Part shown: in pieces, positions 1 to 28,344 of the stretch | Layout: each line of letters starts with the position of its first letter | Numbering within the stretch: position 1 is the first letter of the stretch | Assembly (NCBI RefSeq): GCF_019343105.1 | Contig: NZ_CP073764.1 | Location: forward strand, 1,364,001-1,428,000 | Direction of reading: 5' to 3' | DNA: 64,000 nucleotides | Source: Methylovirgula sp. HY1 | GTDB lineage: Bacteria > Pseudomonadota > Alphaproteobacteria > Rhizobiales > Beijerinckiaceae | The notes under the pieces: model-generated | Seen by the model: the letters and a program-made list of their open reading frames with translations, nothing else | Told to the model about the DNA's origin: nothing | Databases searched by the model: none | Position numbers and translations under genes: made by a program

Positions 1-2890
1 CGATATAGACGTGCGGCGCTGCTTCGAGCGAGGAACCGATCTTCTTATTCGCCCGCTCGATTTCCAATGCACCGGTGACGACGGAACGAATCTGTCGGAT
101 CGTCTCCCATTTGCCGGCGAGCACATCATCGCGCCAGACCCCGGGAATGGACGCGAAACCTTCCAGATGCACCGAGACGGCATCCGGATAGCGCGCGAGC
201 CAAGCCTCTTCGCAGGTAAACACCAAAATGGGCGCAAACCAGAGCGTGACGGCGCGGAAGATCTGCTCGATCGTCTGCAGCGCCGCGTGGCGTTTCAAGC
301 TCGACGGCGGATCGCAGTAAAGCGTGTCCTTGCGAATGTCGAAATAGAAGGCCGAGAGATCGCTGGTCATGAAATAAGACAGCGTCGCAATGACCTTCTT
401 GTAATCGAAAGCGGCATAGGCGGCGCGGATCTCGCCATCGAGCATGACGAGCTGATGCAGCATCAAGCGCTCGAGCTCCGGCATATCCGAAATTTCGACA
501 CGCACGCCCGGATCATAATGGGCGAGCGAGCCGAGCATCCAGCGGATCGTGTTGCGCAGCTTCTTATAGGTCTCGACGAAGGTCTTCAGAATTTCCGGGC
601 CGATGCGCAGATCGTCGGAATAATCGGAGGCCGCGACCCAGAGGCGCAAAATATCGGCGCCGGCATCCTTGATGACGGTCTGCGGCGCGGTGACATTGCC
701 GAGCGACTTCGACATTTTCTGGCCCTTCTCGTCGAGAACGAAGCCATGCGTCAAAACCGCGTCGTAAGGCGCTTGATAGCGTGTGCCGCAGCTCTCCAAG
801 AGCGATGAATGGAACCAGCCGCGGTGCTGGTCCGAGCCTTCGAGATACATCACCTCGTCGCTGCCGCCGTCGCGGATGCGGCGAATGCCGGCGAGTCCCG
901 GAAAATGCACCGGATCTTCAAGCGTGAAGGCATGGGTCGAACCGGAATCGAACCAGACATCGAGCACATCGTCGATCTTCTCGTATGCGGCCGGATCATA
1001 ATCGGGCGCCAGGAAGCGCGCGGCGGCGCCGTCCGCGAACCAGGCATCGGCGCCTTCCGTCGCGAAAGCCGCGGCGATCCTTTCGTTGATCTTCTCATCG
1101 ACAAGGACGGCCTTAGTCTTGACATCGACGAAGACAGCGATCGGCACGCCCCAAGCGCGCTGGCGCGAGACGACCCAATCCGGCCGATTGGCGATCATGC
1201 CGCGGATGCGGTTTTCGCCTTGGCTCGGATACCAGCGGGTGCGCAAGATTTCGGACAAAGCGATCTGACGAAGGGTTGCAGAAGCGCCCTCATCCTGAGG
1301 AGCGGGCGCAGCCCGCGTCTCGAAGGACGATGGCGCATTCAGAGACCTTTCGCCCTTCGAGACGGCGCTTCGCGCCTCCTCAGGATGAGGGGTCTTGGGC
1401 GGTGCGCGGAATGATTTATCCAGCGCGATGAACCATTGCGGCGTGTTGCGGAAGATCACCGGCTTCTTCGAGCGCCATGAATGCGGATATTGATGCTTCA
1501 ATCTTCCGCGCGCGACGAGATTGCCGGCCTCGACCAAAGCCTTGATGACCGCCTCGTTGGCGTCGCCCTTATTACCCTTGTCGTCGATGACGCGCTTGCC
1601 GGTAAAGCCAGGCGCCTCCTCGGTCAAGAAGCCGTCGGCATCGACCGTATAGGGAATGCGCGTGTCGATGCCGCGCTCGGTCAGGACACGGCCGTTTGCC
1701 ATCCAAATGTCGAAGTCGTCACGGCCATGCGACGGCGCCGTATGGACGAAGCCCGTACCGGTGTCGTCCGTGACATGATCGCCGTCGAACAACGGCACGT
1801 CAAAGTCATAGCCTTCGCTGGTCCGAGCCAGAGGATGCGACGCGACGAGCAATTCAAGTTCATCGCTGTTAACGTCGTGCTCGCGGACGAAAGCCTCGAC
1901 TTTCGCTGCCTTGAAGATGCTCTCAGCAAGCGTGTCGGCGAGAACATACATTGCCCCAGCTTTCGCCCAATTGCCCTCTGGCACCTGGGTCACGCGATAA
2001 AGCCCATAGGCAATCTTATGCGAGTAAGAGATCGCGCGATTAGCGGGTATCGTCCATGGGGTTGTTGTCCAAATAACAATAGAAACCTGCTCGTAATCAG
2101 AGCATTTTCCAGCAGCGACGGTATTTTCGGGAAGCAATTGCCGAATAGTCGGTTTTCCAAACCTCCCCGGTTGGCTGCTAAGTGACGTTTTTCCCTTCAC
2201 CGGAAACGCCACATAGATCGTGTCGCTCGTGTGATCTTCATATTCGACTTCGGCTTCGGCGAGCGCGGTCTTTTCGACGACGCTCCACATCACCGGCTTC
2301 GAACCGCGATAAAGCAGACCATTGGCGGCGAATTTCATGATCTCGCGAGCGATCTGCGCCTCGGCCGCATAGCTCATCGTCAGATAGGGATGATCCCAGT
2401 CCCCGACCCCGCCGAGCCTTTTGAATTCCTCGCGCTGCACCGAAACCCAATGTTCGGCAAAGGCGCGGCATTGGCGGCGGAATTCATTGACCGGCACTTC
2501 ATCCTTGTTCTTGCCCTTGGCCCGGTACTCTTCCTCGATCTTCCATTCGATCGGCAGACCGTGGCAGTCCCAGCCCGGCACGTAATTCGAGTCCTTGCCC
2601 GCCATCTGCTGCGAGCGGGCGACGAGATCCTTCAGGATCTTATTCAGCGCATGGCCGATATGGATGTTGCCGTTCGCATAGGGCGGCCCGTCGTGCAGGA
2701 CGAATTTCGGCCGGCCGGCCGAAGCCTCGCGCAAGCGCCGATAGAGATCGATTTCGGCCCAGCGAGCGAGAATCTCCGGCTCCTTCTGCGGCAGACCGGC
2801 ACGCATCGGGAAATCCGTCTTCGGCAGATAGAGCGTTTTCGAATAATCCGGGCCTTCAGCCTTTTTGGCCGCCCGCGTCTGTTCGTTCAT
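1..2890 (-). CDS. ileS: Isoleucyl-tRNA synthetase, C-terminal end missing at window edge
   Basis: This class I synthetase charges tRNA-Ile in the cytoplasm. The ATG at 2890 begins [20 protein letters not shown], and the frame stays open for 963 codons to the window edge, so only a short C-terminal part is missing. The HIGH signature lies in [15 protein letters not shown], and KMSKSLGN is visible towards the 3' end. The [11 protein letters not shown] and [10 protein letters not shown] blocks are also intact. The frame contains an unusual segment of about 35-40 residues (around 497-536) between [11 protein letters not shown] and [11 protein letters not shown]. It is encoded by a 105-nt palindromic repeat and has no counterpart in family members that I recall. 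Despite it, no stop codon or frameshift is seen, so the gene is probably functional. Confidence 0.95.
1287..1391. repeat. Palindromic repeat inserted in frame inside ileS
   Basis: The left arm (1287-1326) starts CCCTCATCCTGAGGAG and ends TCTCGAAGG. The right arm (1354-1391) is its near-perfect reverse complement. Each arm carries a small inner hairpin (GCGGGC/GCCCGC and GGCGC/GCGCC). The element is 105 nt long, exactly 35 codons, so it keeps the ileS frame. The consensus resembles palindromic repeats usually found between genes in Rhizobiales. A partial copy lies at 6425-6452. Confidence 0.85.
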
Positions 2891-6424: not shown

Positions 6425-6452
6425 CCCTCGTCCTGAGGAGCCGCAAGCGGCA
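6425..6452. repeat. Partial copy of the CCCTCATCCTGAGGAG-type repeat
   Basis: The sequence CCCTCGTCCTGAGGAGCCGC followed by AAGCGGC matches one arm of the element found in ileS at 1287-1391, including an inner hairpin GCCGC/GCGGC. The opposing arm is missing or eroded. It lies between secD and secF, inside a probable operon. Confidence 0.6.
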
Positions 6453-6569
6453 TCCAGAGAGAAGACCCGTGCAAATCAGCTCTATCCGATTTGCGGCTTT
6501 AACACCAAAGGCCGGATTTGCCGGCTTTGGCGGGCCCATCGGACCGGCCCAAGTTCAGGATTTCGCAAT

Positions 6570-27648: not shown

Positions 27649-27838
27649 CTAGAGCATGTTCCGGAAAAGTTGAATGACTTTTCCGATGTTTAGACATCGG
27701 ATATATCCGATGTCTCACTTTTTAGAACTCGGATATATCCGAGTTCTCATTGATAAGAATAAGAACATGCTCCAGCTTATTGATTTGGAGCATTTTCCTC
27801 TCGATCGGGTGAGTCCGCCCGATCGGAAAACGCTCTAG
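27649..27838. repeat. Dispersed intergenic palindromic repeat, copy 3, with two palindromes
   Basis: The element is bounded by CTAGAGCATGTTCCGG and GGAAAACGCTCTAG. It holds two perfect 24-bp palindromes, 27692-27715 (arm AGACATCGGATA) and 27724-27747 (arm AGAACTCGGATA). They differ at three positions per arm, and each is matched on the other side. A GATCGGGT/GCCCGATC hairpin (27803-27825) follows. This copy is about 40 nt longer than the others because of the second palindrome. Confidence 0.85.
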
Positions 27839-28113: not shown

Positions 28114-28135
28114 CGGACATGTCAAATGACCCTGC

Positions 28136-28344
28136 GGGAGAGTCTGCTTGGCGCGCGAGCGCAAGGCAGCGCCGAAGGCGAAACCGCCCCGGAAACGCTC
28201 AGGCCCACGGACCGCTGGGGGATGACACTCTGGAAAGCGGCTTTGCAGGTGCTCTGCAAAGCCCACCGACGGGAGCAGCTCCAGCGACGCGCTGATCAGC
28301 GTATAGCTGTGAGGAAATCTTTCAGGTTCTGGGACAGAGGGGGC
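28136..28344 (+). ncRNA. Tandem glycine riboswitch upstream of gcvT
   Basis: The first aptamer begins GGGAGAG (28136), has the conserved GCGCCGAAGG core at 28170-28179, CGCTCAGG at 28196-28203 and GGACCGCTGGGGG at 28209-28221. A second, more divergent aptamer has CACCGACGGGAGCA from 28264, TCTTTCAGG at 28318-28326 and GGGACAGAGGGGG at 28331-28343. This is the standard two-aptamer gcvT arrangement. Glycine binding would switch on the cleavage operon. A stem-loop at 28355-28376 (GCTTTTGG/CCAAAAGC) lies between it and gcvT and may be part of the expression platform. Confidence 0.88.

What the first reader, a model, noticed from the sequence alone, without database searches (positions are those of the whole stretch)
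1287..1391. A 105-nt palindromic repeat has entered ileS in frame, adding about 35 residues to the synthetase
The sequence shows two near-perfect inverted arms of a repeat type that I otherwise expect between genes, sitting inside an open ileS frame and exactly 35 codons long. The encoded stretch ([16 protein letters not shown] and onward) lies between the conserved PQWFIALDK and LSEILRTRW blocks. Palindromic elements inside proteins are well known for Rickettsia (RPE) and rare elsewhere, and a translated insert in an essential enzyme is unusual.
Basis: partly seen in the sequence, partly recalled or inferred. Interest (0 to 1): 0.7.

Follow-up and report, generated by a model that had tools for sequence, protein, structure and literature searches.

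The report
Repeat DNA inserted inside IleRS enzyme
A short, mirror-like piece of repeated DNA sits inside a gene that the cell needs to make all its proteins, adding 35 amino acids to one loop of the enzyme, and related bacteria have unrelated repeats at the same spot, so the loop looks like a place where such DNA can settle without breaking the protein.

Summary
Window 1287-1391 is a 105-nt palindrome, in frame inside the only ileS found in a 3.74-Mb genome, encoding 35 residues between PQWFIALDK and LSEILRTRW. It is two inverted units of a dispersed, covarying, REP-like repeat (13 clusters at E <= 0.01 in this genome); one other cluster lies in frame in dnaE2. This insert is absent from the relatives read, but the loop is reused: 20 of 184 distinct IleRS loops carry a strongly palindromic insert (19 in both of two runs), against 0 of 220 control ileS windows. 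By eye and motif they fall into four families, a fifth by sequence alone; each is dispersed in at least one genome that carries it. On an IleRS tree the 20 need 19 changes of state. A DnaE2 loop shows the same in 4 of 30 loci. Most likely, non-autonomous palindromes land repeatedly in a few permissive loops, persist only where frame and stops allow translation, and decay to scars. In-frame palindromes in proteins are known (Rickettsia RPEs, GTAG/CGTC REPs); repeated use of one IleRS loop by unrelated elements I found in no search. Translation, surface position and the mover are inferred.

The parts
2..2890 (-). ileS, isoleucyl-tRNA synthetase; probable ATG at 2890 (inferred), runs off the window's left edge
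   Evidence: the only match over the TIGR00392 cut-off in the own genome; the next best, L260, is valine--tRNA ligase
1287..1391 (-). 105-nt palindromic element (two inverted REP-like units), in frame, adding 35 residues
1350..1391 (-). unit 1 as read in ileS (5' part of the insert), about [14 protein letters not shown]
1287..1335 (+). unit 2, inverted relative to unit 1; read in ileS as about [15 protein letters not shown]
6426..6455 (+). lone, partly decayed unit of the same repeat, outside ileS

Best explanation
A non-autonomous, REP-like palindromic element (a dimer of two inverted units of about 45 nt) inserted in frame into DNA that encodes a length-tolerant loop of IleRS. The gene stayed functional because the element kept the frame and has no stop in the frame used, so the loop is 35 residues longer and is translated as a hydrophilic, probably disordered linker. 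The same loop has received other elements in other lineages of the order; inserts later lose internal pieces in frame and leave scars. Shown: sequence, repeat status, frame, single ileS, the same site occupied by unrelated families. Inferred: translation, near-neutral effect, surface position, direction of the changes on the tree, and how the element moves.
For: Own-genome repeat: 13 clusters, 2 of them inside conserved genes (ileS, dnaE2). The unit is a structured element: 92.9% of cells paired, covariation score 0.288 against 0.101 shuffled, 0 of 500 shuffles as high. Loop: 20 of 184 distinct sites with z <= -3.5 (34 loops of 25 or more residues tested) against 0 of 220 control windows. Dispersal: family A query matched in 8 of 9 genomes, B in 9 of 9 though G073 gave one match only, C in 2 of 2, E in 1 of 1, the L054 type in 2 of 2, F in 1 of 1. 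Frame: all 186 loops extracted are open and in phase with both flanks, whereas seven non-genic dimers of this repeat are open in 11 of 42 frames. Near pair: L061 and L062 have immediate flanks of 62 and 97 nt that differ at one base, with a plain loop in L062 and an element in L061. Likely scars: L143 beside L034, and L183. Tree: 19 changes for 20 tips. DnaE2 loop: 4 of 30 loci.
Against: Parsimony counts cannot tell gains from losses. Family B inserts in several lineages share orientation and much of the frame, which common descent could explain. No empty site within one species and no target-site duplication was found. No mobilising enzyme was identified: the two Y1 transposases found are IS200/IS605-type, next to OrfB, with no unit within the 3.4-kb loci. 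One of the 20 inserts (L052) is borderline: z -3.5, -2.5. G009 has many copies of family A and no insert in ileS. Protein evidence and a structure model are lacking.
Confidence: 0.85

Rival explanations
1. One ancient palindromic insertion in the IleRS loop of the order, later lost in most lineages and overwritten in others by recombination with dispersed repeats, rather than many new insertions.
For: Change counts on the tree do not give direction. Several family B inserts share orientation.
Against: Four or five sequence families occupy the site (by eye and motif). In the Bosea clade L039, L055, L062 and L065 share a non-palindromic 24-residue loop, L063 has 10 residues, and L061 alone has an element. 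The 29 tree rows outside the clade that holds all elements have loops of 3-13 residues.
Confidence: 0.12
2. The insert is selected for: it adds a useful linker, or its mRNA hairpin slows the ribosome while IleRS folds.
For: It lies in an essential gene found once, and folds to about -82 kcal/mol. The loop is used again and again.
Against: Presence is patchy, sequences are unrelated, loop length runs from 3 to 108 residues, likely scars exist, and a loop of DnaE2 shows the same pattern.
Confidence: 0.08
3. The hairpin is not translated: it is bypassed by the ribosome or removed from the RNA.
For: Very stable hairpin.
Against: All 186 loops extracted are open and in frame while 11 of 42 frames of non-genic dimers are open; bypass or removal would need neither.
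Confidence: 0.02

Closest known systems
Rickettsia palindromic elements (RPE) and Wolbachia WPE in protein genes
   Same: Palindromic dispersed repeats of about 100-150 bp, in frame inside conserved ORFs; an RPE-7 of 144 bp is listed in Rickettsia japonica isoleucyl-tRNA synthetase (PMC3767692, passages)
   Different: Host order differs, and sequence was not compared. That paper says each rickettsial ortholog carries an insert at the same locus and reads this mainly as an old insertion, leaving hot spots open; here unrelated families occupy one loop in patchy fashion. Whether the Rickettsia insert is at the same loop was not tested
Intragenic GTAG and CGTC REPs (PMC3733652; section 15 read, passages)
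   Same: REPs and REP dimers inside ORFs, among them DnaE2 and tRNA synthetase genes; different REPs at about the same site of recB in two Xanthomonas
   Different: For other genes of a functional category that paper found different sites. The window's units lack a GTAG tag; the words isoleucyl and ileS do not occur in its main text; its supplementary list was not readable
Enterobacterial ERIC/RU and Neisseria Correia elements fused in frame to ORFs (PMC2229807, PMC2759123; passages)
   Same: Small non-autonomous inverted-repeat elements read within host ORFs
   Different: Other sequences and hosts; no repeatedly used loop in the passages seen

Membership tests
REP / BIME-like palindromic repeat | many dispersed copies, mainly between genes | tested here: met
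   36 match rows, 13 clusters; 11 clusters not in a recognised gene
REP / BIME-like palindromic repeat | stem-loop unit with covarying stem | tested here: met
   23 units: covariation score 0.288, 0 of 500 shuffles as high; 8 pairs with changes on both sides (26 of 500 shuffles as high)
REP / BIME-like palindromic repeat | inverted dimers | tested here: met
   ileS and other multi-unit clusters hold neighbouring units in opposite orientation
REP / BIME-like palindromic repeat | terminal GTAG or CGTC tag (the two super-families of PMC3733652) | tested here: inconclusive
   no GTAG in the consensus; CGTC lies inside the unit, not at its end
REP / BIME-like palindromic repeat | associated RAYT (Y1 tyrosine transposase) | tested here: not met
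   2 PF01797 matches at E <= 0.01, both on contig 2 beside OrfB_IS605, no repeat unit in those loci
Rickettsia palindromic element (RPE) | in-frame presence in conserved ORFs | tested here: met
   ileS and dnaE2
Rickettsia palindromic element (RPE) | sequence of one of the RPE families | not tested
   no RPE sequence was compared
Rickettsia palindromic element (RPE) | host in Rickettsiales | tested here: not met
   best named IleRS relatives are Methylocella tundrae, a Rhodoblastus MAG and Bosea-type genomes
MITE | target-site duplication | tested here: inconclusive
   near pair L061/L062 shows a replaced loop and no clear duplication

The most novel reading that the evidence does not exclude
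The loop after PQWFIALDK in IleRS, and an N-terminal loop of DnaE2, are real landing sites: unrelated palindromic elements enter them far more often than other loops because of target preference as well as tolerance, and this repeated capture and trimming is a main source of new linker sequence in these enzymes across the order.
Probability: 0.3. Interest if true: 0.7.

Novelty: new variant of a known kind. Interest (0 to 1): 0.52.

Why it matters
It suggests, in free-living bacteria, that selfish palindromic DNA can be absorbed again and again into one loop of an essential enzyme, with filled, plain and scar-like states side by side. That makes a question left open for Rickettsia (old single insertions or hot spots; PMC3767692) testable in harmless soil bacteria, and gives natural experiments on how much extra sequence an IleRS loop tolerates.

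Tried and rejected
Structure prediction of the window IleRS with 39 relatives (alignment A1) never completed: busy, accepted, unfinished, failed, not accepted. Surface position is inferred only from loop-length tolerance (3 to 108 residues); by sequence the insert falls at about residue 418 of the solved IleRS 1ffy (that this is the Staphylococcus aureus enzyme is recalled).

RAYT mobilisation in this genome: not supported. Rfam: only a glycine riboswitch and a tRNA in the window at gathering cut-offs. Insert in ValRS: no inverted repeat of 13 nt or more within 150 nt. Papers with the unit's letters: 3 unrelated hits. My first loop extractions missed sites or mis-cut some loops; counts come from then on, but one search is the second run for the z-scores. 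Two scripts found nothing because of bad anchors; one (60) read part of the set; DnaE2 counts are. One search was an entry error. One paper was not held.

Not tested: RPE sequence similarity, the site of the Rickettsia IleRS insert, strain-level polymorphism, other genes of the relatives, loops under 25 residues for palindromes. notes one TGA inside the match of some genomes (G019, G064, G088, G008, G073); I did not place them. The loop extraction found none in the loop, and the matches of G019, G064, G088, G008 and G073 start upstream of the presumed start codon.

Full report
1. What is there. The window lies in a 3.74-Mb, two-contig genome. ileS reads on the minus strand from a probable ATG at 2890 to beyond the left edge and scores 774.9 bits against TIGR00392. 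It is the only match over that family's cut-off in the genome; the next best, L260, is valine--tRNA ligase at 1247 bits. Between PQWFIALDK and LSEILRTRW lies a 105-nt palindrome at 1287-1391, 35 codons' worth, without stop. Arms. Single-stranded DNA fold -43.5 kcal/mol, z -8.2; coding-strand RNA with flanks -81.9 kcal/mol, z -7.3; plus-strand RNA -81.8, z -4.7.

2. The repeat. BLAST of the 105 nt against the own genome gives 36 match rows at E <= 0.01, many of them one place on both strands. I grouped them into 13 clusters and took stretches around the 12 other than ileS. The unit is CCCTCATCCTGAGGAG, a variable G+C hairpin, then CGTCTCGAAGGACGAGGG (23 units; its last bases are seen in part of the units). 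The structure I named pairs in 92.9% of cells; the covariation score is 0.288 (shuffled 0.101, 0 of 500 as high), and slid controls fall to 0.08 or less. Against this, 'further pair types' is not above shuffles (272 of 500) and 'pairs with a change on both sides' only weakly so (26 of 500). Multi-unit clusters hold neighbouring units in opposite orientation.

3. Genic or not. Of the 12 other clusters, one lies inside a long open frame that matches a conserved family across the element: error-prone DNA polymerase DnaE2 (NF004225, 1371 bits; L220 2990-3059). Seven more ORFs from five other loci were scanned: six gave no family, and L218 matched downstream of the element. The remaining six loci have no spanning stop-to-stop frame longer than 127 residues. 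In L219 the open frame of a BrnT-type gene extends upstream into a unit; I count it as between genes.

4. Relatives. 110 of 119 genomes of the family (own included) gave an IleRS match at E <= 1e-100. I read the loop in 106 of these and in one more later (plain 10-residue loop); in three only contig-edge pieces were found. Of the nine without a match, six carry another IleRS type, recognised by eye from SWYVKV or SWYLKV in place of PQWF, with no such loop; in three nothing passed the ileS cut-off. Two genomes are present twice, so 184 distinct loops remain (the one is not among them). Loop length, counted from a fixed anchor, runs from 3 to 108 residues; the median is 53 with and 11 without a strongly palindromic insert.

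5. Palindromic inserts at this loop. Of the 34 loops of 25 residues or more, 20 fold with z <= -3.5 against 60 shuffles; 220 control windows of 150 nt from 110 of the ileS genes give 0 (lowest -3.1). That is 20 of 184: 15 of 104 in the family sample and 5 of 80 named loci. In an earlier run with 100 shuffles 19 of the 20 also pass; L052 does not (-2.5). Six further loops carry what I read as repeat sequence below the cut-off: L040, L047, L037, L084, L077, L046. Loops under 25 residues were not tested.

6. They are different, dispersed elements. Sorted by eye and motif: A (CATCCTGAGG; window, L031, L036, L090, L047, remnant L046), B (CTCTCCCC and GGGGAGAGGG types, the most diverse), C (L100, L101), E (CGTCATTCCGG; L067), F (CGTCATTGCGA; L037, below the z cut-off). 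B and C could be related. Genome searches: A in 8 of 9 genomes, none in same-genus G021; B in 9 of 9, but one match only in G073, perhaps its own ileS; C 23 and 25 rows; E 80 rows; the L054 type 12 and 11 rows; F 21 rows, mostly one unit. Rows count both strands and include the ileS site. G009 holds 98 family A rows and a plain loop in ileS, so abundance alone does not fill the loop.

7. Independence. On a tree of 114 IleRS with the loop removed, the 20 palindromic tips need 19 changes; 26 tips with any element need 22; starred branches force at least 17 for the no-element label, 12 for B, 5 for A, 2 for C. The labels are about as scattered as shuffled ones (22 changes for the no-element label against 23.6 shuffled, 107 of 500 as low). 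A tree of 184 shorter rows also gives 19. Four of the 114 rows fill under 27% of columns, and both trees are quick ones. Such counts give no direction. The clearest case is L061 against L062: immediate flanks differ at one base, loop 171 against 72 nt. L143 looks like a scar of the element in its genus mate L034, and L183 keeps one hairpin.

8. Frame. All 186 loops extracted are open and in frame with both flanks, with no failed locus, and all insert lengths are multiples of three (this follows from the extraction). Seven non-genic dimers of the window's repeat are open in 11 of 42 frames. This fits selection for a translated insert. It is not proof of translation.

9. Other loops and genes. 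A second IleRS loop after VASHPLA holds palindromic inserts in 3 of 110 aligned IleRS: L112 z -8.5, L101 -6.6, L090 -3.8. The variable loop after YVAFPV serves as a negative control: of 36 segments of 24 residues or more, one (L098) reaches -3.7 and the rest lie at -2.2 or above (40 shuffles each). An N-terminal DnaE2 loop, beyond the part that Pfam's PHP model matched, was read in the 30 best loci of 76 genomes with a match: 4 of 30 have z <= -3.5 (own, L235, L236, L231), L247 -3.0, and 7 were too short to test. So IleRS is not alone.

10. How it most likely works. A non-autonomous palindrome enters many sites; those that interrupt genes mostly vanish; a few loops tolerate extra residues, and there copies in an open frame persist, diverge and shrink. 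This is inference from the above. 89% of the insert's residues belong to a set of disorder-promoting types that I chose from memory. The mover is unknown: no RAYT-like gene was found beside units in the own genome. PMC3733652 says of CGTC REPs too that they apparently lack a dedicated transposase (passage).

11. Known kinds. In-frame palindromes are established for Rickettsia and reported for other bacteria (PMC10969869, PMC2229807, PMC3733652; passages and one section). An RPE-7 is listed in a Rickettsia isoleucyl-tRNA synthetase (PMC3767692, passages), and DnaE2 and tRNA synthetases are named among REP-bearing genes. My ten paper searches listed no paper that I could recognise as reporting this IleRS loop; I looked into six of the papers listed, most subscription papers are not held, and supplementary files could not be read. 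I therefore call it a new variant of a known kind.

Noticed in passing
window 27692-27747: Two adjacent 24-nt palindromes (AGACATCGGATATATCCGATGTCT and AGAACTCGGATATATCCGAGTTCT) about 380 bases before a glycine riboswitch at 28125-28224; operator-like.
   Followed up: no
L220 2990-3059: In-frame copy of the same repeat in dnaE2; the same loop holds other palindromes in related genomes.
   Followed up: partly
L112, L090, L101: IleRS loop after VASHPLA: Second IleRS loop with palindromic inserts, in Aureimonas, Jiella and Tianweitania.
   Followed up: partly
L068 and L111, IleRS loop: Two Bradyrhizobium share an extra piece with a small palindrome (CCGGGCAAGCCCGG) that the related L073 and L074 lack.
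   Followed up: no
L265-L270: Six genomes of the family use another IleRS type (SWYVKV or SWYLKV in place of PQWF), without this loop.
   Followed up: partly
L219 2603-3001: Open frame of a BrnT-type toxin gene runs upstream into a repeat unit that would encode PSSFETRLSGAPQDEG.
   Followed up: no
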